A stretch of DNA of 35,156 nt from Planctomycetota bacterium (GCA_026386795.1 JAPLMU010000116.1:1-35156), one strand, 5' to 3'; shown: positions 14,504 through 31,756, numbered from the stretch's first letter. Translations and numbers: made by a program. Notes: generated by a model from the sequence alone, not told the origin.

Positions 14504-14575
14504 GCGGGAGTAGCTCAATGGCAGAGCAGCTGCCTTCCAAGCAGCAGGTTGCGGGTTCGAGTCCCGTCTCCCGCT
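14504..14575 (+). tRNA. tRNA-Gly (anticodon TCC)
   Basis: A 72-base cloverleaf. The acceptor stem GCGGGAG pairs perfectly with CTCCCGC, the D-arm is GCTC/GAGC, and the anticodon stem GCTGC/GCAGC encloses the loop CTTCCAA with anticodon TCC at 14536-14538. The T-arm is GCGGG/CCCGT around TTCGAGT. The discriminator base is T and no CCA is encoded, so CCA must be added after processing. The TCC anticodon reads GGA and GGG codons. Ribonuclease D begins 16 bases downstream on the same strand. Confidence 0.97.
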
Positions 14576-21573: not shown

Positions 21574-23328
21574 TTAGCGCTTGGACGCAATCCACTCGCC
21601 GAGTTTGGCGCGTGTCCATGTATTGACGCACTGTGAATTGCCAAGCCAACCGCGCCGGGCGGTTGCGATCCCGTACGGAAGCTGATCGAAGTCGCCAGCG
21701 CCGTGTGCATCAGTATCGATCGCTACGAGGCAACCTGCATCCACGCACATGCGCACATGGGAGTCGCGAAGATCAAGTCGCATGGAATTGGAGTTCACTT
21801 CAAGAGCAACATTGTGCTTTGCGGCTTCGCGTGCGAGCGCGGCAATGTCTGGTGAAAGGCCTTCCCGGGCATTGACGATTCGCCCAGTGGGGTGCCCGAT
21901 GACATGCACCAACGGGTGACGGATGGCGGCAAGCAATCGCTCGGTCGCAATGGCTGGCTCAGCGCGCAGGGCACTGTGCGGGCTGGCGACGACGAAATCA
22001 AGTTCCGCGAGTACATCGTCTGGATAGTCGAGCGTGCCGTCGGCCATGATGTCCACTTCGCTGCCGGCAAGCACGGAAATACGGTCTGCGTACACCTTGG
22101 CCACCGCGCGAATCTCAGCGATATGAGCGCGCAGGCGTTCAATCGAAAGTCCATTGGCCTGCGCCTGCGAACGACTGTGGTCAGTCAGGACGATGGTATG
22201 GAACCCTCGCGCGATGGCTTCGTCCACCATGCCTGCAATTGAAAGAGTTCCATCGCTCGCCGTTGTATGGCAATGGAGTTCTGCTTTGATGTGCTTCGTG
22301 TCCACCAAGTCTTTCGGCGGATGATGTTCAAGCTCGCCGTGATCTTCGCGCATCTCAGGGGGAATCCACCACAATCCGAGTGCTTCGTAAATCTGTTCCT
22401 CAGAGTGTGCGGCCAAAGGTTTCTCGCCGCGTTCTTGCGGGGTTCCCTTCGCGGTGGCGTCCTCTTTGAAGAGTCCGTACTCGTTCAGGCGAAGGCCCAT
22501 CTTCTGGGCGCGCTCGCGCAGGCGGACATTGTGTTCCTTACTTCCCGTGAAGTAGAGAAGGGCGGCGCCGTACTGTTCATCAGCGACGGTGCGAAGATCA
22601 ACCTGTATCCCGTGTGCAGTGCGAATACTTGTCTTGGTTTCGCCTGAAACCAGCACTTTGGAAACGCCGGGTGCAGTGCGCAGTGCTTCGTGGAGCGCGG
22701 CGGAATCTGGCGAACTTGCCACGATGTCGAGGTCGCCGATGGTTTCCTTGCCGCGGCGCAGACTGCCAGCATGAGAGATGCGCGTGACGGCGCCCGCCTT
22801 CTTGAGGTAGGCAATGAATTCAAGCGCAACCGGCATGGCTTCGCCGAGTCGGATTCGACCGCGCGTGGTGTCGAGGAACGTCAGCGATTCTTCAATTGCC
22901 TTCAGCGTCTTTGGGCCCATACCTGGCAGGCCGCCCAAACTTCCGTCAGCCAACTTTGCGCGCAGGCTGTCAATGGAATCCACGCCGCCTTCGGTCCAGA
23001 GTGTGCGGACTCGCTTTGGTCCAAGACCAGGAACTTGCAATAGCCCGGGAACGCCGGCGGGGATCGACGCAAGCAGTTCCTCGCGCTCGGCGACTTTGCC
23101 GGTGGTTACAAATTCCAAGATCTTCTTGGCACTCGAGTCGCCGATGCCCGGAATGTCCCGCAATCGTGCGGGGTCAGTACGCGCGAGTTCGGCTAAGTCT
23201 TCGCCAGCCTCTTCGAGCGTGCGCGCCACTTTGCGGTTGGCGTTCACCTTGAATGCGTTGGCGCCGGTGAGGTCCAAGACATCTGCAATCTCCGCAAAGA
23301 TACGGGCTAATTCCAAGTTCTTACTCAC
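21574..23328 (-). CDS. polX: Family X DNA polymerase with PHP domain (PolX)
   Basis: A 584-residue bacterial PolX, a gap-filling repair polymerase. The N-terminal 8-kDa domain (NLELARIFAEIADVLDLTGAN) is followed by helix-hairpin-helix motifs (IPGIGDSSAKKILE and VPGLGPKRVRTLW). The nucleotidyltransferase palm has GSLRRGKETIGDLDIV, with two catalytic aspartates, and GIQVDLRTV with the third. The C-terminal PHP domain (about 345-580) carries the metal-binding set: ELHCHTTASDG, VLTDHS, GSEVDI, SPHSA, IGHPTGR, EVNSN and DTDAHGAGD. PHP domains of PolX give 3'-5' exonuclease or AP-endonuclease activity. It begins 10 bases after the stop of the FtsK/EccC-like gene, so it is probably the last cistron of that operon; a functional link is not evident. 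Confidence 0.95.
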   Translation of the reverse strand: MSKNLELARIFAEIADVLDLTGANAFKVNANRKVARTLEEAGEDLAELARTDPARLRDIPGIGDSSAKKILEFVTTGKVAEREELLASIPAGVPGLLQVPGLGPKRVRTLWTEGGVDSIDSLRAKLADGSLGGLPGMGPKTLKAIEESLTFLDTTRGRIRLGEAMPVALEFIAYLKKAGAVTRISHAGSLRRGKETIGDLDIVASSPDSAALHEALRTAPGVSKVLVSGETKTSIRTAHGIQVDLRTVADEQYGAALLYFTGSKEHNVRLRERAQKMGLRLNEYGLFKEDATAKGTPQERGEKPLAAHSEEQIYEALGLWWIPPEMREDHGELEHHPPKDLVDTKHIKAELHCHTTASDGTLSIAGMVDEAIARGFHTIVLTDHSRSQAQANGLSIERLRAHIAEIRAVAKVYADRISVLAGSEVDIMADGTLDYPDDVLAELDFVVASPHSALRAEPAIATERLLAAIRHPLVHVIGHPTGRIVNAREGLSPDIAALAREAAKHNVALEVNSNSMRLDLRDSHVRMCVDAGCLVAIDTDAHGAGDFDQLPYGIATARRGWLGNSQCVNTWTRAKLGEWIASKR

Positions 23329-23338
23329 CGGATTCTCC

Positions 23339-26300
23339 TCAGGCGCGTGCGCGCAGTGCCTTTGCTACATGCTCCAGAAGTGCAGCGTCTGGAAGTGCAT
23401 ACGGTCGGAATTTCTCAAGAAGTCCCGACTCCTCGTTCGCAAGCAGCGCGCGATGGAAGCCGAGGCGGCTCGCGGCGGGGCCATCGATCAGCGTGCTTGA
23501 ATCGGTCACGCCCATTTGGAACAGCACCTTGTTCTCAAGTTCGCGCAGTGAATTGCGGTCGACGGTGCGCTGCAGATTTGCGAGCGTATCTGCCCAGAGG
23601 ATGCAGTGGATGCCGACGAGCGGGCCTTCCTTCAAGAGAAGGGCGAGCACCTTGTCCGGCGTCGGTGCTGCGTCAGCAGATGAGAAGCTGTAGTCATCCT
23701 CAGTGCGCCGCAGTGAACGGAAGCGGTGCACGCCGTTGACCAAGAGGAACATCCCAGGGGCATCGGAGCCGCCGTCAGTGTTGCGGCGCGCAAGTTCTTC
23801 GCCGAGAGCGACGATCGCATCGCCAACGTCACGGAACGACGGAATCTGTACATCGTGCGGCAGAGCAGCGCGCACGCCAGCAAGCATTCCGTGCAGTCGA
23901 TCATCGGGCGTGGTTCCATCGAGGACAACAATGCGCGTTCCCACGATCGGTGTTTGCGCAGCGATCGAGATCATCGCCATGGCCATGAGCGCGGCCGCGC
24001 TTTCGTCACGCTGACCGACGACGGCGACATTCGAGCCACTGCGGCGAACGAGGGCGGCGTGGGTGGGATCTTTGATGCTGACTGCATCGCCAAACCACAC
24101 TTTGGGAGCAAATGCTTCTCGCCCAGGTGCGCCGGCGGCCAGCGCAGCGAGGAGCGGACCATTCGCCCATGGATCTGCGGGCTGATTGCCTTCAAAGACA
24201 ATCGGCTTCGGTCGTGGTGCGCTGCGATGTGAACCGTCAGTGGCGGTGACGAGCCTGAGTTGCGCGTCGCGTTCTTCGTCGCCGATCCAAACCACTTGGA
24301 ATGGACTGTTGCCTTCCAGCAATCCGCCGGCATCGTTGTAGATCGCTTCGCCGGGGCGAGTCAGCAATCGAGCGGCCGTATTGTCATCAGAGAGGATCAG
24401 TTGGCTGTCAGTCTCAGTGCACTGCAGCGCGATGCGCACGCCCATTTGCCCCATGGTGCTGCGCGCGATGCTGTACGCGCCGCCAAGCGTCTGGCTACCG
24501 AGCACTACGTGCATGCCGAATGCGCGGCCTTGGCGCACAAGGCGGTCCAAGAGAAGCGAGGCGTCTTGCGCCACCTTGTCGTCTTCAATGAAGAGTTCTT
24601 GGAACTCGTCAATCACGAGCAGGCAGCGCGGCATGCGCTCTGGGCGTTTAAGCGCACGCCAGTCAGTGATATTCTGCACGTTCGCAGAGCGATAGAGTTC
24701 ACCGCGACGCCGCAGCTCGTCATCGAGTCCTTGCAAGACGCTGAGTCCAAATTCGCGATCGCTTTCCACAGCAACTGCACGCGCATGCGGCAGGGCGCTC
24801 GCGGCGTAGGCCTTGAACTCAACACCCTTCTTGAAGTCAACGAGCCAGAATTCCACTTCATCAGGCGAATACCAGAGTGCGGTATTCACAATGAGTGCAT
24901 TGAGGAGCGAACTCTTTCCGGAGCCGGTCTTGCCGGCCACGAGGGCGTGCTGGCTCGTACCTTCGCCAAGCGTCAGGTACTGCAGGCGGTTTGCGCCGCT
25001 GCGCCCGAGCGGAACGCGGAAGTTCTTCGCTGTGGAAAGCGTCCATCGTTCTTCTGGCTTTGGTGTGACTGACGAAAACGGCACTTCAACGCGGTTGGAA
25101 TCCTTGGCAGCGCGACCAACGGCGCGGGTGAGCCGCAGCAGCATGGCATCGTCCGGCGGGGCGTCTGGAGTGAACGGCAATTCTCCTAGGTGCCCTTCGT
25201 CGAGTGACCAACGTTCGGGCTTGGCTCCCTCGGCAGCGAGCCAACGGACCGTGATGACACCGCGACGGAGATCGTCAATATCGAGCCCGGGTGGCAGCGC
25301 AGCGCGAAGATCGCGGAGCATCAAGACGTGTACGCCGCAGCGGGCGCCGCTTTGCAGAATGCTTGCAAATCGCTTGGCGGATTGGTCCGAGACATTCACT
25401 GGGAAGTCCGCCATCACCAAGAATCGATATGGCTCAGCAATTTCACCGGCTTGTTCGTTGTACGCCTCAATTGATGGGTACTCGTTGCGCAAGTACTTCT
25501 GGATCACCGTCTCCATGTGCTCAGTGAGATCAGCGAGGCGCTGCTCAATGTGCCGCACATCAGTCCAGATTCGGTCAGTGACCAAGAGTTCCATCTCGTC
25601 TGCCAAGTGCATGAAGCCCGCGAAACTCTGGCCGAGCCCCACCGGATCCATGAATACGAAGCGTGCCTTGCCGGCGGGAATCGAAACGAGAAGTCGGGCA
25701 ACTGCGTTCTGCAAGATGCGCAAGCCTTCGGCGCGGCGTTCGACCGGTGCGTCAATGAGAAGAGACATCCGCTCCGGCGCGCCAAGGAACGCCGGAATGC
25801 GCCACGGCGAGTGGGTGTCAACTCCACTCCAAGCAAGTTCGGCAGCAGTGGGAAGGGCGTCTGGAACGTCCTTCAGACGCAAGGCAACCTCGCCGATACG
25901 AATCACGGCCAATGGCTGCAGCGGTGGCTGCCACGAATCCCATCCGGATTCGTCCCATTGCAGCGTGCATTCGCGGTCCAAACGTTGCGACTGCTCGAAG
26001 CCGCTGGTGATGGTCTGTTGAGCAGCGCTCCACGCCGCGTGTGCTGCGGCGGTTTCTGCAAACTCAAGTTCTGAAGCTTCGCGTGCCACTGATTCCCAGC
26101 GGTTCTGTTCTTCCGTACGCGTTACGGTTCGACGCTCCGTGACCTCTGCAACTAATCGGTCTCGTAGCCGCTCAGTTTCCTCAATAGCGATCGCGCGCTG
26201 CTTGAGTGCCTTCGCGTGATAGTGCGGCACCTTCTGATCAATGTGCGCAAGCACTTCCTTGAGTTTGCGTTCCACTTCAACCACCATCGGCTTGTGCATA

Positions 26301-27256
26301 GCGTCAGCGGTGGCGAGGTCAGCATCGCGGGCGCGCTTGGCAACATCTTCGCGTTCACGTCGGCTTCGCTCCGCACCTTCGAGTGCGGCTTTCAATGCAG
26401 CCCGCGCTGTGGCGGCAGTTTGTAGGAAGGGCAGGTAGCGAGCCTTCACCTCATGGCGCGCCATGCCGTACAGCACAGCGATGGCAATCACAAAGAGGAG
26501 CAGCGCAACGCCGCCACCAGAGGCGACGGCCGGAACCGTTTCTAATCCAAGCTGTGTCTTCAAGAGCAAGCCGCCAACGATTCCGGCGCCAACCATCAAT
26601 GCCAGTGGAATGACCAGAATTGGGCCGCGGAAGATGCCGGAAATCCGGCATGCGCGCAACTGCACCAATGAGCCAGCGAGCGCGTTCATGCAGGCTTCAA
26701 TGTTCCCCGGTCCGCCCACGGGGATGTTCGGCTCGGCAAGCGCCCGTTGTCGGTACCCGCGCACGGTCGCATGCGCTGCGTCAGTAATTTCCGCGAGCCG
26801 CGACTTCCATCCATCAAGTTCGACCATGCGCGCGCTGTGCGCCTTGCGAATTTCCGGCACCGCTGCCTCGAACACGCTCTCAGCCATCCAGACTCGCTCG
26901 TCATAGGTGCCGCGTGTTTCGTCTTCCTTGTCTTCTGCTTGCCGAACGGCCTGAGCGCGCAGGGTCTTCTCGTCGGAACGCACCTTGGCAACTGCAGCTT
27001 CTGCGGCCGCCTCGATTTCGTTCGTACGGCGCGTAAAGTCCGCGGCAACGCCATTGAGTTGTTCAGCAAATGACGCTTCGAGCGACTCAAGCGCCGAGCG
27101 ATGCATGCGCTCGTTCAGGGACTTTCCGCGCGCTCCTCGAGCGCTCGCGGTGCGCTCTGCCTCAGCGCGACCGGCGCTGGCTGACCACACCAAGTCCACC
27201 AACGCGCGTTCCCGGTCGAGCGGAGTAGAGGGGTGTTCGGGCATCTGAGAAGTCAC
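23339..27256 (-). CDS. FtsK/SpoIIIE-type ATPase, EccC-like (type VII-like secretion motor)
   Basis: A 1305-residue membrane ATPase. Residues about 50-170 form a coiled coil; two membrane segments lie at 211-232 and 241-263; a second long coiled coil covers about 280-430. Three RecA-like units follow. Unit 1 (about 490-670) has no P-loop. Unit 2 (about 750-995) is intact: Walker A GKTGSGKS at 775-782, VDFKKGVEF, Walker B LLVIDE at 879-884, and the SQT sensor at 921-923. Unit 3 (about 1055-1300) has GQRDESA and LLVNGVH where the Walker motifs should be. Each unit ends with a matching GxHV-type strand (641, 914, 1215). The three-unit plan with a nearby WXG100 gene resembles EccC/EssC of ESX secretion; DNA translocation is less likely. 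There is no FHA domain. The GTG start has TATCAT 6 bases upstream; an ATG at 27244 is possible. Confidence 0.85.
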   Translation of the reverse strand: MTSQMPEHPSTPLDRERALVDLVWSASAGRAEAERTASARGARGKSLNERMHRSALESLEASFAEQLNGVAADFTRRTNEIEAAAEAAVAKVRSDEKTLRAQAVRQAEDKEDETRGTYDERVWMAESVFEAAVPEIRKAHSARMVELDGWKSRLAEITDAAHATVRGYRQRALAEPNIPVGGPGNIEACMNALAGSLVQLRACRISGIFRGPILVIPLALMVGAGIVGGLLLKTQLGLETVPAVASGGGVALLLFVIAIAVLYGMARHEVKARYLPFLQTAATARAALKAALEGAERSRREREDVAKRARDADLATADAMHKPMVVEVERKLKEVLAHIDQKVPHYHAKALKQRAIAIEETERLRDRLVAEVTERRTVTRTEEQNRWESVAREASELEFAETAAAHAAWSAAQQTITSGFEQSQRLDRECTLQWDESGWDSWQPPLQPLAVIRIGEVALRLKDVPDALPTAAELAWSGVDTHSPWRIPAFLGAPERMSLLIDAPVERRAEGLRILQNAVARLLVSIPAGKARFVFMDPVGLGQSFAGFMHLADEMELLVTDRIWTDVRHIEQRLADLTEHMETVIQKYLRNEYPSIEAYNEQAGEIAEPYRFLVMADFPVNVSDQSAKRFASILQSGARCGVHVLMLRDLRAALPPGLDIDDLRRGVITVRWLAAEGAKPERWSLDEGHLGELPFTPDAPPDDAMLLRLTRAVGRAAKDSNRVEVPFSSVTPKPEERWTLSTAKNFRVPLGRSGANRLQYLTLGEGTSQHALVAGKTGSGKSSLLNALIVNTALWYSPDEVEFWLVDFKKGVEFKAYAASALPHARAVAVESDREFGLSVLQGLDDELRRRGELYRSANVQNITDWRALKRPERMPRCLLVIDEFQELFIEDDKVAQDASLLLDRLVRQGRAFGMHVVLGSQTLGGAYSIARSTMGQMGVRIALQCTETDSQLILSDDNTAARLLTRPGEAIYNDAGGLLEGNSPFQVVWIGDEERDAQLRLVTATDGSHRSAPRPKPIVFEGNQPADPWANGPLLAALAAGAPGREAFAPKVWFGDAVSIKDPTHAALVRRSGSNVAVVGQRDESAAALMAMAMISIAAQTPIVGTRIVVLDGTTPDDRLHGMLAGVRAALPHDVQIPSFRDVGDAIVALGEELARRNTDGGSDAPGMFLLVNGVHRFRSLRRTEDDYSFSSADAAPTPDKVLALLLKEGPLVGIHCILWADTLANLQRTVDRNSLRELENKVLFQMGVTDSSTLIDGPAASRLGFHRALLANEESGLLEKFRPYALPDAALLEHVAKALRARA

Positions 27257-27262
27257 ATTGTG

Positions 27263-27268
27263 ATGATA
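27263..27268 (-). promoter_or_regulatory. -10-like TATCAT before the FtsK/EccC-like gene
   Basis: TATCAT on the minus strand ends 6 bases before the GTG at 27256 and lies in the 33-base gap after the 76-residue gene. It could drive a leaderless internal transcript of the ATPase and polX. No convincing -35 box at normal spacing was seen. Confidence 0.35.
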
Positions 27269-27289
27269 TGCACTCGCAGGGTGCGGCGG

Positions 27290-27520
27290 TCACCAATTCG
27301 ACTGATCATCGCCGCATTCGCGACGCACCCGTTCGAGCACTTCATTCATCGAGTCCATTGCATTGAGCACAGATCGAAGCGTTGTTTCGAGCGGTTCGAT
27401 CTGCTTGCGCCACAGTGCTTGGGAGACCGGGTCGTCCCAACTTTCCTGTGACCGCTGCCACGCCACAAGCAATTGCCGGTGTGCGTCCTTCAGTTTCGCC
27501 CGTGAGCCGGAAACGCTCAT
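27290..27520 (-). CDS. Small helical WXG-like protein (76 aa)
   Basis: A 76-residue soluble protein predicted to be two helices around a turn: LKDAHRQLLVAWQRSQE, then WDD at 28-30, then a long amphipathic helix from PVSQALWRKQIEPLE to NEVLERVRREC. The tryptophan-containing turn between two helices is the layout of WXG100 proteins, though the protein is short and has WDD rather than WxG. Position supports the idea: its ATG overlaps the stop of the 203-residue gene (ATGA), it has a good Shine-Dalgarno sequence (GGAG, about 6 bases before the ATG), and it is followed 33 bases later by the EccC-like ATPase. It may be a second substrate or a partner of the WXG100 protein encoded two genes upstream. 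No family was recognised with certainty. Confidence 0.65.
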   Translation of the reverse strand: MSVSGSRAKLKDAHRQLLVAWQRSQESWDDPVSQALWRKQIEPLETTLRSVLNAMDSMNEVLERVRRECGDDQSNW

Positions 27521-28128
27521 GGGTTCTCCTCGGTGTGCGTTGTGGGCGTTGGCTCGGAGGGCGCTTCCACTTCTTCACCATCTTCTCCGCCCCGGCGCAT
27601 GTGGCTTGAAATGCCCAAGATCTCCATCAATCGGTCGGACTCATCGCCGCCGCGCAGGTAGGCCTCAAGGTGCTCGGTCATTCGCTTGAGCATGGCATTC
27701 ACGCGTGGGACATCGCGGTCGAGCACCGTGTGCATCCCACTCAACGCGCCCTTAAAGATCACTGACTGCCGCGGCAATTCCGTGGACCAGCGCTTGGTAT
27801 TGCGAAGTTTGGTCTCCGCATACTCAAGACGCTTCAGGGCGCGATCGAGTGCTTTCTTCTCATCGACCACGCTTGGGCGCGCATCAGCGGTGGCCTTGAT
27901 TTCTTGCTTGCGAAACAAGGCGCTCTTACACATCACCACTTCGTCTTGAACTTTGCGCATGCGCTTGCGCCAGAAATCGGGCTGTTCAGATTCCACCCAT
28001 GCAAGCGTTCGCTCGATTTCGCCCTCGGCTTCTTCAAGCGCTAACCCAAAGGTCTCAGCGGCAACCAACAACGAGGCGCGAAAGCGCTCGATGGTTTCCA
28101 CGTCTGCAACCTTGATCTGTTCGCTCAT
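27517..28128 (-). CDS. Unrecognised helical protein of the WXG100/FtsK locus (203 aa)
   Basis: A 203-residue protein without signal peptide or membrane segment. It is almost entirely helical: about 8-48 (ETIERFRASLLVAAETFGLALEEAEGEIER), 50-78 (DFWRKRMRKVQDEVVMCKSALFRKQ), 88-118 (a coiled coil ending RNTKRW) and 122-160, followed by an acidic, proline- and threonine-rich tail. I do not recognise the family. It lies 23 bases after the WXG100 gene and overlaps the 76-residue gene by 4 bases, so it belongs to the same operon. A role as chaperone, adaptor or substrate of the ATPase is plausible from context only; the four-helix layout is also seen in long WXG- or LXG-type substrates, but the key motif is not present. 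Confidence 0.7.
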   Translation of the reverse strand: MSEQIKVADVETIERFRASLLVAAETFGLALEEAEGEIERTLAWVESEQPDFWRKRMRKVQDEVVMCKSALFRKQEIKATADARPSVVDEKKALDRALKRLEYAETKLRNTKRWSTELPRQSVIFKGALSGMHTVLDRDVPRVNAMLKRMTEHLEAYLRGGDESDRLMEILGISSHMRRGGEDGEEVEAPSEPTPTTHTEENP

Positions 28129-28151
28129 AGATATATCGATGCTGCTGTCAG

Positions 28152-28424
28152 TCAGCGCTGGTTGAGGTACGCCTCAGCGGCGTCGGCTTTGCGAAGGAGA
28201 TACGGAACGTGTTGTTCAGCTGCCTTGGTGAATTTCTGCAAGACGCGCACGGTGGAGTCGAACTCCTCAGAGAACTTCGCCTGCTCTTGATCGCGCCACG
28301 TCTGTGAGAGCGTCGCCATCCGAGCGTTGAGCGCGCCGGTTTGTGTCTGGAGCTCGAGTGCGAATTTCTTCAGGTCTTGCGCAAAGCGCCTGAGTTCTGC
28401 GGGGTCAACGACTGCCTTTGCCAT
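28152..28424 (-). CDS. WXG100 (ESAT-6-like) family protein
   Basis: A 90-residue helical hairpin. Helix one is DPAELRRFAQDLKKFALELQ, the turn contains WRD at 43-45 in the position of WxG, and helix two runs from EEFDSTVRVLQKF to the C-terminus. Length, all-helical character and the central tryptophan fit the WXG100 superfamily, whose members are small secreted substrates of type VII systems and activate the EccC/EssC motor. Two departures are seen: aspartate replaces the glycine, and the C-terminal YxxxD/E secretion motif is not present. AAAGGA nine bases before the ATG is a reasonable Shine-Dalgarno site. It begins 24 bases after the OPT transporter stop and starts the run of genes ending with the FtsK/EccC-like ATPase. 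Confidence 0.8.
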   Translation of the reverse strand: MAKAVVDPAELRRFAQDLKKFALELQTQTGALNARMATLSQTWRDQEQAKFSEEFDSTVRVLQKFTKAAEQHVPYLLRKADAAEAYLNQR

Positions 28425-28448: not shown

Positions 28449-30680
28449 TCAATGATTCGGAGCAGTGGGCACGGTGGTTGCCCCCGATGGCGATGTCGGG
28501 ACAACTTCGACCTGCGCGGAGGGCGTCGCTGTGGGGTAGGGCAGGAATGCCGCGATCAGCCCGTCGCCGATACCCATGATGGCCCATCCAGCGATGAGAC
28601 CAGCGCAGACGGCTTCTTTCGAGTCCACCCACAGGCGCCAACCGAATTCGCCCACGCGCTTCAGATAGCGGTGTTCCATGGTGGCAAAGAAGGCTGCGCC
28701 GACCCACATCATGATGGTCGATTCGGGCGGCAGCACAACACCAAGACCGATCGCCACAGCAGAGATTGGGAACTTGCCGCGTGAAATCAGGCGTGCGGAT
28801 TCCAGGATGATCGCAATCGTTACACCCGCGAGCATTGCCCATGCCGCGCTGACAGGCAGTACGCCCCAGAGTTTCTGGATGCCATCAACAGTCTGTACCA
28901 GCGATGCGCCAACGGGGGACTTGCCCATGCCCTCAATGACCTTGGAAATAGCCGCCCACTGCAACGCACCCGGGACAGCCCACGTCTCCGAAACATGCTG
29001 CTCAATTGGAATATCCGCTTTGCGGTTCCAAAGGAAGAGCACATAGAAGAGCGGGGTGGATGCCAGTGCCCCTGCAACAATTCCGATGCAGTGTCCCCAC
29101 GCCTGCTGTCGAGGTTTGGCGCCGAGCATGTAGCCCGGCTTGATATCCATCAATAGATTCGAGGCATTCGATGCGACTTCGGTGGTTACGCCGGCCGTCA
29201 TCAGGTTGGTGCCAGGATTCGTTGGCTGGATTGCACCAAACGTGAATTGCGTGATCTTTGAGAGTGAGCCAGTCGGCGTGGTGGAAGTGAGAGCAGTGGC
29301 GTTCGCTGCGATGAGCGTGAGGAGCACGATCATCGGTATTGACAATGCGCCAAGCCACATACTCACGCCGAACCATTCGTGGTTCAGCCAAATGATCAGC
29401 GCGCTGAAGATAGGAACGCCCACGAAACTCACCCAGAGCGGCAGCTCAATGTGCCGGACACAATCTTCATTCACTTCGCGGCGCTTGAACATTCCGCTAA
29501 ACGCAGAAAGCAGGACCTTCGGCTTTGCAAAGAGTCCCAGCATGGATGCGGTGAGCATCATGGAGACCCCCCACCACAGGCACCAGGTGTTGGTGATGTG
29601 TGCTCGACCAAAGACGGCATCCGCCATTTGGTAGGTGCCGTCTGATTGCACGATCTTCTTGAAGTTCTTCGGCAAGATCTCGCCATTCATGATCATGAGC
29701 GGCGCAAGCACCAAGTAATTGGTGACCATTCCAATCACCAAACTATTGGCGACGCGCATGCCCATCAGGCCGCCAGCGCCCACCATGGACAGATCAAACA
29801 TGACGGTCATTCCGAGCTTATCGAGCTGAATTCCGGAGATATTCGGCACCCAGCCGATGACTTTCCCTGCAGCATCTTTGGCAGGGGTATAGAGCCACTC
29901 GTCTAAGCGCTCCGGGAACTTCTTCAGCGTGTCGGTTGCCTTGGACGTTCCAAGAATGGAAATTTGCAGTACCGCCATGTAGCCCGTGGCAACGACCAGT
30001 TGCAATGCTGCGCCAATGCCGGCAGCCCACGCCAATGCCTTGGCTTTGAAGAGTCCAGTGTCGACGCCAGCGCCATCGGCCCGAGCACCGGATTCGATGG
30101 GCAATCCGGCAGCGTCCAGATTGTTGGTTCCGCCAGCCGGCGCATGTGGATACAACGAGTCAAGCACCACCGCGCATGCACGACCTTCAGGAAACGGCTG
30201 CTGCTCATCGTTGATGAAACGGCGCTTCATTGGGAATGCAACAAGTACACCCAAGATGCTGGCCACCACATTCCAGATGAGCATCTGGTGCCACGCCATC
30301 ACGGTGTTCGTCACGAACATGTACGCCATCAGCGCGCTGATCAGCGGGCCAGTCATGTACCCCGCAGCGGTAGCGATTGATTGAACCGCGTTGTTCTCCA
30401 GGATCGTCATGTCCTTTGACAACTGCAGGCGCGCCATTGCCCGGAAGATCACAAAGGACAGGATCACGCTCGTTACGCCCACGCCGAGCGACCATCCGGT
30501 CTTGGCACCGATATAGAGGTTGGTGGCACTCAGGACGCCGCCGAGCATGAATCCGGTGACGGCTGAGCGGAAGGTCAGCTGTGGCATGTTGCCGCGGAAC
30601 ACGGTCTCAAGCCACCAGTGATCTTTCTGTGAGCGAGTCCAAGTGCGGGTCTGTTCGTCGGTCAGGTGTGGGAGTGCCAT
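28449..30680 (-). CDS. OPT-family oligopeptide/metal-chelate transporter
   Basis: A 743-residue integral membrane protein with about 14-16 hydrophobic segments and no ATPase domain, the normal size for the OPT family. Landmarks are FRSAVTGFMLGGVLSATNLYIGAKTGWSLG near the N-terminus, EQQPFPEGRACA, the DIKPGYMLGAKPRQQ segment, and a C-terminal PESTIMMWVGAAFF. OPT proteins import oligopeptides or metal-chelate compounds by proton symport; the substrate here is unknown. The ATG at 30680 gives normal family length; the open frame upstream to 31034 is unlike the family and overlaps the divergent gene. The WXG100 gene follows after 24 bases on the same strand, so transcription may run on into the type VII-like genes. 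Confidence 0.88.
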   Translation of the reverse strand: MALPHLTDEQTRTWTRSQKDHWWLETVFRGNMPQLTFRSAVTGFMLGGVLSATNLYIGAKTGWSLGVGVTSVILSFVIFRAMARLQLSKDMTILENNAVQSIATAAGYMTGPLISALMAYMFVTNTVMAWHQMLIWNVVASILGVLVAFPMKRRFINDEQQPFPEGRACAVVLDSLYPHAPAGGTNNLDAAGLPIESGARADGAGVDTGLFKAKALAWAAGIGAALQLVVATGYMAVLQISILGTSKATDTLKKFPERLDEWLYTPAKDAAGKVIGWVPNISGIQLDKLGMTVMFDLSMVGAGGLMGMRVANSLVIGMVTNYLVLAPLMIMNGEILPKNFKKIVQSDGTYQMADAVFGRAHITNTWCLWWGVSMMLTASMLGLFAKPKVLLSAFSGMFKRREVNEDCVRHIELPLWVSFVGVPIFSALIIWLNHEWFGVSMWLGALSIPMIVLLTLIAANATALTSTTPTGSLSKITQFTFGAIQPTNPGTNLMTAGVTTEVASNASNLLMDIKPGYMLGAKPRQQAWGHCIGIVAGALASTPLFYVLFLWNRKADIPIEQHVSETWAVPGALQWAAISKVIEGMGKSPVGASLVQTVDGIQKLWGVLPVSAAWAMLAGVTIAIILESARLISRGKFPISAVAIGLGVVLPPESTIMMWVGAAFFATMEHRYLKRVGEFGWRLWVDSKEAVCAGLIAGWAIMGIGDGLIAAFLPYPTATPSAQVEVVPTSPSGATTVPTAPNH

Positions 30681-30738
30681 GGGTGGTTCTCTGTGCGCGG
30701 GACACCGCGTGTGCGGAGCGTAGCGCGATGACGCGGGG

Positions 30739-30744
30739 TAGCCT
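30739..30744 (+). promoter_or_regulatory. -10-like TAGCCT before the membrane protein gene
   Basis: TAGCCT ends 7 bases before the ATG at 30752; the gap (CCGGGGC) has no Shine-Dalgarno match. On the minus strand TACGCT (complement of 30717-30722) is a candidate -10 for the divergent OPT gene with a leader of about 30 bases. Confidence 0.35.
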
Positions 30745-30751
30745 CCGGGGC

Positions 30752-31756
30752 ATGACCCCTTCGCCAGCCGCCGAATCGACACACGATCCTCGCGCGCCGC
30801 AGTCCGGGGACGGCGGATCATTTGTGGGATCAGCAGTATGGGCCGCTCTTGCCGCTTGGCGCGCACGGATTGGAGTGCTGACGGCTGCGATGGTATTGCT
30901 TGCGGTGGCGAACGCCCCGACGCAGTGGACGCAATGGGCAGCATCGGCACGGATGGAGGAAGCTTCGTCGCGCGGCGAGGCGCGTGGGGACCGTTCGCCC
31001 GATCCAGAGGAAGCGGTGCGCGACCTCGAGGCAATCGGACCAGCGTGCTGCGGGGTGTGCGGCGCTGCCATCTTCGGGTTCTTTGTGGTCATGCCGCTGA
31101 CCGCGGGCGCCACAGTGCTCGGCGCGCGGGCTGTCCGCGGAAATGCACGGTTTGGAGACCTCGCATGTGGATTCCGCCGCTATGTGCCGACCCTAGGAGC
31201 GGCCCTTGTGACACTCACCGTCGGCGGTGGTGCGGCAATGGCGGTCAGTCTCATGAACTCAATCGCATTGATTGGATCGGCGTCGCACATGCTCTCTGGC
31301 ATCTTGACGCCGGGTGCCATGTTGGTGCTTGGCATAGTGGTCGTTGCGGTGACACTCTGGTTGACTGCTCGCCTGTGGTTTGCAATCGTTCGGGTGGCGG
31401 ATCCAGAGCGGCCGCGTGTATCCGGGATGGCATCGGTCACGCTCAGTTGGCAGTGGACTGAAGGTCCGGTGCAGTGGTCGATGCTCGGCGTGCTGTTCGT
31501 TGCGGTGGGCGTTGCGCTGGTCGCCATGTTGCCAGGCATGATGGCATGGACATCGGCGGCATCAGCAACCGGCGCTGCGCGGACGGCAGTCTTTGCGATC
31601 GCCGTGGCTCTCATGGCCATTGGTATCTGGCTCGCGGGCACATTTGCGCTGGTCCTCTTCGGTGCGGCGTATGAGCGCGTGGCTCGCCTGCGGGAGCCGA
31701 TTGCGCCGCCGGTTCATGAGGAAATCGCAACTCACAGCGGAGGGATCGACGCATGA
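30752..31756 (+). CDS. Polytopic membrane protein of unknown function
   Basis: A 334-residue membrane protein with about six hydrophobic segments, for example IGVLTAAMVLLAVANAP, CGVCGAAIFGFFVVMPLTAG, ALVTLTVGGGAAMAV, MLVLGIVVVAVTLWLTARLWF, WSMLGVLFVAVGVALVAMLPG and TAVFAIAVALMAIGIWLAG. A charged soluble loop (about 66-88) follows the first segment. No enzymatic motif is seen. The layout, with RARxxDFxxGFRxY-like VRGNARFGDLACGFRRYVP, recalls membrane proteins that carry a glycerophosphoryl- or DUF975-type core, but I cannot assign it. The start at 30752 is chosen because the upstream open frame has no membrane character and TAGCCT lies 7 bases upstream. It overlaps the next gene by 4 bases. 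Confidence 0.7.
   Translation: MTPSPAAESTHDPRAPQSGDGGSFVGSAVWAALAAWRARIGVLTAAMVLLAVANAPTQWTQWAASARMEEASSRGEARGDRSPDPEEAVRDLEAIGPACCGVCGAAIFGFFVVMPLTAGATVLGARAVRGNARFGDLACGFRRYVPTLGAALVTLTVGGGAAMAVSLMNSIALIGSASHMLSGILTPGAMLVLGIVVVAVTLWLTARLWFAIVRVADPERPRVSGMASVTLSWQWTEGPVQWSMLGVLFVAVGVALVAMLPGMMAWTSAASATGAARTAVFAIAVALMAIGIWLAGTFALVLFGAAYERVARLREPIAPPVHEEIATHSGGIDA

What the first reader, a model, noticed from the sequence alone, without database searches (positions are those of the whole stretch)
23339..28424. Minimal type VII-like (WXG100 + EccC/FtsK) locus in a planctomycete
Four tightly packed minus-strand genes encode a WXG100 protein, an all-helical 203-residue protein, a 76-residue WXG-like protein and a 1305-residue membrane ATPase with three FtsK-type units. 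Seen in sequence: gaps of 23, -4 and 33 bases, the tryptophan turn in both small proteins, two membrane segments and an intact Walker A/B in the ATPase. Established: WXG100 with EccC/EssC-type ATPases define ESX/type VII systems. No EccB, EccD, EccE, YukD, EsaA, EssA, EssB or mycosin-like gene, and no FHA domain, is in the window. If the genome lacks them, this is a reduced WXG100 export system for a diderm-type envelope whose route past the outer membrane is unknown.
Basis: partly seen in the sequence, partly recalled or inferred. Interest (0 to 1): 0.85.

Follow-up and report, generated by a model that had tools for sequence, protein, structure and literature searches.

The report
Planctomycete four-gene WXG100–EssC-like ATPase operon
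Four neighbouring genes of a planctomycete bacterium, conserved as a unit across much of its phylum, encode a cut-down relative of the type VII protein-export machine, consisting of one membrane motor protein and three small helical partners; the general kind was noted before, but this membrane-anchored, toxin-free version has not been studied and whether it exports anything is untested.

Summary
The four genes are real, at the stated coordinates and gaps. They form a conserved unit: 79 of 86 loci with enough upstream DNA carry all three small genes beside the ATPase. In 294 phylum genomes the ATPase family (41) and this WXG100 family (40) occur in the same genomes. The 90-residue protein is a true WXG100 protein; its nearest solved structure is Helicobacter HP0062, which also has a WRD turn. 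The 76-residue protein is distantly WXG100-like. The 203-residue protein is a long helical hairpin of no known family. The ATPase has three FtsK-type units with only the middle one active, two membrane helices and long coiled coils. It resembles EccC/EssC but forms its own clade with plasmid ATPases of other phyla that sit beside WXG100 genes, two of them beside nuclease-type genes. YukD, EccB, EsaA and EssB were not found. This is not an ESX system that lost parts. It is a variant of the 'solo WXG + three-domain FtsK' operon noted in 2012 and described in 2024: here stand-alone, membrane-anchored, without a toxin domain, and nearly universal in its own family. Protein transfer across the inner membrane is the likeliest function; export is unproven and no YxxxD/E signal is present.

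The parts
28152..28424 (-). WXG100-family protein, 90 aa, WRD turn; the most conserved gene of the set
   Evidence: Pfam PF06013 34.5 bits over cut-off 27.3; profile of 23 orthologues best matches HP0062 3fx7 at E 5.6e-12, then EsxB and EsxA; mean column identity 71%, 19 invariant columns; only WXG100 hit in the genome
27517..28128 (-). 203-aa all-helical protein: two long antiparallel helices (10-76, 88-158) and a disordered acidic tail; no Pfam, NCBIfam or PDB relative
   Evidence: AF2 pLDDT 87; invariant Y157, near-invariant W44, W53, W114; single copy per genome
27290..27520 (-). 76-aa helical protein, distant WXG100-like second partner (W-x-D turn, invariant W28, D30)
   Evidence: profile-profile match to the 90-aa family at E 1.4e-4, probability only 52%; profile finds PDB 4lws at E 0.004 and EsxA with W-x-D in register at E about 1; Deinococcus plasmid homologue at E 1e-9
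23339..27256 (-). EssC/EccC-like membrane ATPase, 1305 aa, GTG start
   Evidence: PF01580 97 bits; TIGR03924 EccCa 114 bits against FtsK 32 bits, all below NCBIfam cut-offs; AF2 and Foldseek
26642..27256 (-). ATPase residues 1-205: N-terminal, rich in charged helix-forming residues (coiled-coil-like)
   Evidence: inference from composition; not modelled (the model begins at residue 181)
26471..26620 (-). two membrane helices, residues about 213-231 and 244-262
   Evidence: hydropathy; two such segments in 100 of 117 orthologues, none in the Caballeronia and Deinococcus relatives
25967..26464 (-). long helix/coiled-coil stalk, residues about 265-430
   Evidence: AF2 helix of about 190 residues, model 60-250, part of it at pLDDT 46-60
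25052..25939 (-). first FtsK-type unit (440-735), degenerate, no Walker A; probably matches the EccC DUF/ATPase0
   Evidence: contiguous profile alignment into YukB 557-873
24257..25051 (-). second, active FtsK-type unit (736-1000): Walker A 24911-24934, Walker B 24602-24622
   Evidence: matches EccC ATPase1 best
23342..24256 (-). third FtsK-type unit (1001-1305), degenerate

Best explanation
A self-contained, membrane-anchored member of the WXG100/EssC-like ATPase operon family. The ATPase probably forms a hexamer held in the inner membrane by a two-helix hairpin, with coiled coils on both sides and one working ring (the middle unit) between two degenerate rings. The WXG100 protein, the 76-aa WXG100-like protein and the 203-aa helical hairpin probably form a helical complex, comparable to EsxA or LXG-Lap complexes, that is presented to the ATPase as its substrate, with energy-driven transfer into or across the inner membrane. 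Shown by computation: family membership, gene order, one active ring, membrane helices, co-occurrence, purifying selection, absence of several known partners. Inferred: hexamer, complex formation, translocation and its direction. Unknown: cargo and any passage of the outer membrane.
For: Order and co-occurrence; WXG100 membership, nearest HP0062 then EsxB/EsxA; EccC-like fold and profile scores; two membrane helices in 100 of 117 ATPases; purifying selection; relatives outside the phylum place a nuclease toxin and a SUKH-type immunity gene (Helicobacter plasmid: WXG100, WHH/colicin-DNase, SMI1/KNR4, 77 aa, ATPase) or a 436-aa protein with a C-terminal ExK-like motif (Caballeronia) in the slot of the 203-aa gene; 9 of 94 planctomycete loci carry a C-terminal extension on that protein, scanned as Imm33-like (PF24719, E about 1e-14) in two of them and sharing the DSGW motif in most others.
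Against: No export signal YxxxD/E in 23 WXG100 or 21 of the 76-aa orthologues. No toxin or effector domain in most loci. No known partner for the outer membrane. No secretion data. The ATPase is not inside the EccC clade in a small tree with long branches. Relatives sit in defence-type islands (PMC11090510), which would also fit a function inside the cell. The homology of the 203-aa protein with the toxin-slot proteins is only positional (weak HMM E 4e-4 to 0.2).
Confidence: 0.5

Rival explanations
1. A defence or conflict module that works inside the cell: the ATPase ring with WXG100 adaptors senses or remodels a target (phage or plasmid component), as proposed for the WXG100/EssC-like cassettes inside CoCoNuT and TerY-P islands, and secretes nothing.
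For: Caballeronia relative lies between VWA, Card1-like CARF nuclease, PP2C, kinase and AAA genes; Rhodococcus relative has TerD fused to the ATPase; PMC11090510 and PMC4978471 describe the same association.
Against: None of these partner genes is conserved beside the planctomycete operon. It is single copy, strongly conserved and present in 34 of 37 genomes of its family, unlike most defence cassettes. It has membrane helices, which the island versions lack. PADLOC hits are only to the shared ATPase core.
Confidence: 0.2
2. A housekeeping envelope complex of these planctomycetes: the ATPase and helical partners shape or energise the inner membrane, with WXG100 proteins as permanent subunits rather than cargo.
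For: Near-universal in its family (34 of 37 genomes), most conserved gene is the WXG100 protein, strong purifying selection, no cargo gene; weak helical matches of the 203-aa model to Vipp1 and chemoreceptors are not evidence beyond a common shape.
Against: Absent from most of the phylum (41 of 294 genomes) and most of the same order outside the family; relatives elsewhere carry toxin and immunity genes.
Confidence: 0.17
3. A canonical type VII (ESX/Ess) system that lost its other parts.
For: WXG100 plus EccC-like three-unit ATPase with membrane helices.
Against: No YukD, EccB, EsaA or EssB; separate ATPase clade; only the middle unit active; own N-terminal coiled coil; no YxxxD/E.
Confidence: 0.05
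4. A DNA translocase of the FtsK kind.
For: The active unit superposes on FtsK motor domains (Z 31.6, rmsd 2.7 over 280 residues).
Against: The same genome has its own FtsK; the family lies outside the FtsK clade (100/100); no FtsK gamma domain in Pfam; two membrane helices where a relative's FtsK shows four; strict linkage with WXG100.
Confidence: 0.05

Closest known systems
WXG100/FtsK-like ('mobile T7SS') operon: Zhang et al. 2012 PMC3482391 table 1 footnote 6; Bell et al. 2024 PMC11090510 (citing Anantharaman 2012)
   Same: Solo WXG100, second WXG100-like protein, coiled-coil protein, EssC-homologous ATPase with three units of which only the middle is active and a long N-terminal coiled coil; planctomycetes were named in 2012
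   Different: Two membrane helices in the ATPase (described versions lack them), no nuclease or DNA-mimic gene, not inside a VWA/kinase/McrBC island, near-universal in one family instead of mobile
Helicobacter pylori HP0062-HP0066 ('WXG100 secretion system', PMC4978471; HP0062 structure, PMC3397514)
   Same: HP0062 is the closest solved relative of the 90-aa protein, with the same WRD turn; FtsK/SpoIIIE gene in the cluster
   Different: That cluster includes an HNH/EndoVII nuclease and a DnaK homologue; a related Helicobacter plasmid ATPase shows no clear TM hairpin
T7SSb (Ess/Yuk) and T7SSc-j (PMC11217815)
   Same: WXG100 plus a membrane EssC-type ATPase; helical toxin-targeting partners
   Different: No YukD, EssB, EsaA; described as having four C-terminal NTPase domains; only in Gram-positive phyla
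T7SSa (ESX)
   Same: EccC-like tandem ATPase fold
   Different: No EccB or YukD domain; no YxxxD/E
LXG-Lap1-Lap2 pre-secretion complex (PMC9600955)
   Same: One long helical protein encoded with two small WXG100-like proteins
   Different: No LXG profile match, no toxin domain, no FxxxD/YxxxD motif shown

Membership tests
WXG100 superfamily (90-aa protein) | match to the WXG100 profile over its cut-off | tested here: met
   PF06013 34.5 bits, cut-off 27.3; TIGR03930 at 32.3 is below its stricter cut-off of 44.85
WXG100 superfamily (90-aa protein) | W-x-G turn between two helices | tested here: inconclusive
   WRD in place of WXG, W43 and D45 invariant; same as HP0062, a solved helical hairpin (PMC3397514)
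WXG100 superfamily (76-aa protein) | profile match | tested here: inconclusive
   no Pfam match; hhalign 52% probability; 4lws at E 0.004
Type VII secretion system (ESX/Ess) | EccC/EssC-type membrane ATPase | tested here: inconclusive
   fold and profile resemble EccC but scores lie below NCBIfam cut-offs and the clade is separate
Type VII secretion system (ESX/Ess) | YukD/EsaB or EccD ubiquitin-like domain | tested here: not met
   PF08817: none over cut-off in 61 genomes, control rings in B. subtilis; own genome is 87% complete
Type VII secretion system (ESX/Ess) | EccB (T7SSa) | tested here: not met
   PF05108 none in G000, positive control at E 3e-106; none in 41 genomes
Type VII secretion system (ESX/Ess) | EssB/YukC and EsaA (T7SSb) | tested here: not met
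   PF10140 none over cut-off, TIGR03929 none, B. subtilis rings in both
Type VII secretion system (ESX/Ess) | EccE | tested here: inconclusive
   PF11203 none, but no control rang
Type VII secretion system (ESX/Ess) | YxxxD/E export signal on a substrate | tested here: not met
   0 of 23 WXG100 and 0 of 21 76-aa proteins
Type VII secretion system (ESX/Ess) | ATPase-dependent secretion of the WXG100 protein | not testable with these tools
   needs an experiment
WXG100/FtsK-like ('mobile T7SS') operon | three ATPase units, only the middle active | tested here: met
   one Walker A in 119 of 119, model
WXG100/FtsK-like ('mobile T7SS') operon | two WXG100-like proteins beside the ATPase | tested here: met
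   order in 79 of 86 loci; the second is only distantly WXG100-like
WXG100/FtsK-like ('mobile T7SS') operon | ATPase in one clade with the plasmid members | tested here: met
   96/96 support, small tree with long branches; all three units match
WXG100/FtsK-like ('mobile T7SS') operon | coiled-coil protein fused to a nuclease | tested here: not met
   203-aa protein has no nuclease domain
WXG100/FtsK-like ('mobile T7SS') operon | no transmembrane helices in the ATPase (as described in PMC11090510) | tested here: not met
   two in 100 of 117
WXG100/FtsK-like ('mobile T7SS') operon | mobility | tested here: inconclusive
   present in 34 of 37 genomes of its family, only weak core matches in viral contigs; no tree reconciliation was done
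FtsK DNA translocase | FtsK gamma domain and FtsK clade | tested here: not met
   no gamma domain in Pfam scan; outside the FtsK clade

The most novel reading that the evidence does not exclude
A protein-export machine of planctomycetes made of a single membrane ATPase and three small helical proteins, with no other type VII part, that moves its own helical complex through the inner membrane of a two-membrane cell as a stable, inherited function rather than as a mobile toxin system.
Probability: 0.3. Interest if true: 0.75.

Novelty: new variant of a known kind. Interest (0 to 1): 0.5.

Why it matters
Type VII secretion is studied almost only in Gram-positive phyla. A four-gene, membrane-anchored version that is fixed in a planctomycete family would show which parts of the machine are indispensable, and gives a small, testable system for asking whether WXG100 proteins are cargo or motor partners and how (or whether) cargo leaves a two-membrane cell.

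Tried and rejected
EccB and EccE had silent controls; EccB was repeated against a Streptomyces plasmid that carries it, EccE stays open. Searching for conserved extra neighbours gave none: flanks change between genera, and the largest clusters were antisense shadow ORFs. The 203-aa protein gave no convincing relative: PDB profile best E 0.06, Foldseek best E 0.12, and VIA-align Z about 10 to unrelated long helices, which for a helical hairpin means only a common shape. Homology of the 203-aa protein with the Caballeronia, Rhodococcus and Helicobacter toxin-slot proteins was tested and is weak (E 4e-4, 1e-3 and 0.24 in full-sensitivity mode on a small set), so only the position is claimed. The 1.4-kb gap between genes in one relative (L041) holds an unrelated opposite-strand ORF, not an effector. 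A viral origin was checked: only two weak matches to the ATPase core in viral contigs, and PHROGs hits are to the shared motor. A PADLOC hit to SspH/Mad8 covers the ATPase core only.

Full report
Observation. The four minus-strand ORFs are present exactly as stated: 90 aa (28152-28424), 203 aa (27517-28128), 76 aa (27290-27520), 1305 aa (23339-27256), with gaps of 23, -4 and 33 bases. The window lies in a 2.79-Mb draft genome, 87% complete. The nearest named record among the database loci is a Phycisphaerales bacterium (UBA966, 92% identity over the whole ATPase).

Is it more than chance? All four genes recur together. In the same family and order the three small genes lie just upstream of the ATPase in the same order in nearly every locus. 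In a larger set, 79 of 86 loci with more than 1.5 kb upstream have all three, 7 have none and none has only some; a few loci are the same contig fetched through two tools. Two of the complete loci are labelled Lentisphaerae (L128) and Verrucomicrobiales (L147). In 294 genomes drawn from the phylum, the ATPase family is in 41 and this WXG100 family in 40, all of them ATPase carriers; the exception is a fragmented genome, 80% complete. Some genomes keep both but apart: in several complete genomes of one family the WXG100 gene lies far from the ATPase, and the other two were not recognised beside it. In the window's own family 34 of 37 genomes have the ATPase. Flanking genes are not conserved. 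dN/dS against two congeners is 0.02-0.16 for all four genes.

The 90-residue protein. Pfam WXG100 at 34.5 bits, above cut-off. A profile of 23 orthologues finds HP0062 of Helicobacter pylori first (3fx7, E 5.6e-12), then EsxB (E 1.6e-8) and EsxA (E 1.5e-4). HP0062 is a dimeric helical hairpin with a WRD turn, encoded near an FtsK/SpoIIIE gene (PMC3397514); the same W-R/K-D turn is found here. It is the most conserved of the four. No Tyr-x-x-x-Asp/Glu signal occurs in 23 orthologues.

The 76-residue protein. No Pfam family. It aligns with the 90-residue family in a profile comparison with W and D in register (E 1.4e-4, probability 52%), and its profile reaches an uncharacterised chain 4lws at E 0.004 and S. 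aureus EsxA at E about 1. A Deinococcus plasmid operon with two WXG100-like proteins has a clear homologue (E 1e-9). It is probably a diverged WXG100-type partner.

The 203-residue protein. No family in Pfam or NCBIfam. AlphaFold2 gives a confident antiparallel hairpin of two helices of about 70 residues and a disordered tail. Structure searches found only generic long helices. It is single copy per genome. In 9 of 94 loci it carries a C-terminal extension; the two that were scanned match Imm33-like (PF24719, E about 1e-14), and most of the rest share the DSGW motif by eye.

The ATPase. NCBIfam scores favour EccCa (114 bits), EssC (93) and EccCb (84) over FtsK (32), but all lie far below the curated cut-offs. 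The model of residues 181-1305 (pLDDT 88) shows a long helix and three RecA-like units and matches T. curvata EccC over all three (Foldseek E 9e-31). By superposition the active unit alone fits FtsK motors best (Z 31.6, rmsd 2.7 over 280 residues), with EccC chains at Z 27-28 over longer stretches. Each of 119 long orthologues has exactly one Walker A, in the middle unit. A contiguous alignment into YukB and the best unit matches in Streptomyces EccC suggest the register DUF - ATPase1 - ATPase2 with ATPase3 missing; this register is an inference. Two hydrophobic segments precede the first unit in 100 of 117 orthologues, and none in the Caballeronia and Deinococcus relatives. In a tree of the active unit, the family and five plasmid relatives form one clade (96/96) separate from FtsK (100/100) and EccC; branches are long, so deeper placement is open.

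Relatives that suggest function. Plasmid searches found the same ATPase type in a Helicobacter plasmid, with a weak WXG100 protein, a WHH/colicin-DNase nuclease, an SMI1/KNR4 (SUKH) protein, a 77-aa protein and the ATPase in that order, and in a Caballeronia plasmid, with WXG100, a 436-aa protein carrying an ExK-like motif at its C-terminal part (read by eye), a 113-aa and a 76-aa protein, flanked by VWA, Card1-like CARF nuclease, PP2C, kinase and AAA genes. Rhodococcus and Deinococcus plasmids have further arrangements, one with TerD fused to the ATPase. The nuclease or toxin sits where the planctomycete 203-aa gene sits; sequence homology between them is weak, so this is a statement about position.

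What is already known. Zhang et al. [quoted passage not shown] An H. pylori pan-genome paper calls WxG plus FtsK a minimal type VII set and lists a 'WXG100 secretion system' (PMC4978471). Bell et al. 2024 (PMC11090510) describe the operon in CoCoNuT islands: EssC-like ATPase with only the middle unit active, long N-terminal coiled coil, no membrane helices, two WXG100 proteins, a coiled-coil nuclease and a DNA-mimic-like protein, and cite Anantharaman 2012 for stand-alone copies. So the kind is known. What appears new is this variant: membrane helices, no nuclease, stand-alone, and fixed in a family. No dedicated study of it was found in the open library; subscription papers are not covered.

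Mechanism. The best-supported reading is an inner-membrane hexameric motor with three small helical proteins that form a complex and are its substrate or gate. Family, architecture, order and conservation are shown by computation; hexamer, complex, translocation and direction are inferred. A defence role inside the cell and a housekeeping envelope role remain open. Canonical ESX is disfavoured by missing YukD, EccB, EsaA and EssB and by the separate clade.

Verdict. New variant of a known kind, interest 0.5.

Noticed in passing
28449-31034 (-) and 21574-23328 (-): The operon is packed between an 861-codon membrane-transporter-like ORF (24 bases upstream) and a PolX/PHP-type DNA polymerase gene (10 bases downstream); these neighbours are conserved only among close relatives, so co-transcription is possible but not part of the unit.
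   Followed up: partly
L043, L032, L123, L136, L081, L131, L094, L045, L113: The 203-aa family carries a C-terminal extension of about 110-170 residues in nine planctomycete loci; two were scanned and match Imm33-like (PF24719). Why an immunity-type domain is fused there is unexplained.
   Followed up: partly
L174:4042-8300 (+): In G163 the order is WXG100, a 119-aa protein with an N-terminal hydrophobic segment, a 1006-aa ATPase, then a 983-aa protein with coiled coil and hydrophobic segments: the membrane and coiled-coil part may be split into other genes.
   Followed up: no
L162, L163, L164, L168: In several complete genomes of one planctomycete family the WXG100 gene stands alone, far from the ATPase, and the 203-aa and 76-aa genes were not recognised.
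   Followed up: partly
L178:7495-11463 (+): Rhodococcus conjugative plasmid: a TerD domain is fused to the N-terminus of the same kind of ATPase, next to TerD-family genes and a weak WXG100 protein.
   Followed up: no
L180:12235-13053 (+): Rhodococcus pseudokoreensis plasmid: a 272-aa protein with a helical N-terminus and an unidentified C-terminal domain follows the ATPase, beside Hsp70 and GrpE genes; H. pylori also has a DnaK homologue in its WXG100 cluster (PMC4978471).
   Followed up: no
14504-14575 (+): tRNA-Gly (anticodon TCC), the only tRNA in the window.
   Followed up: no
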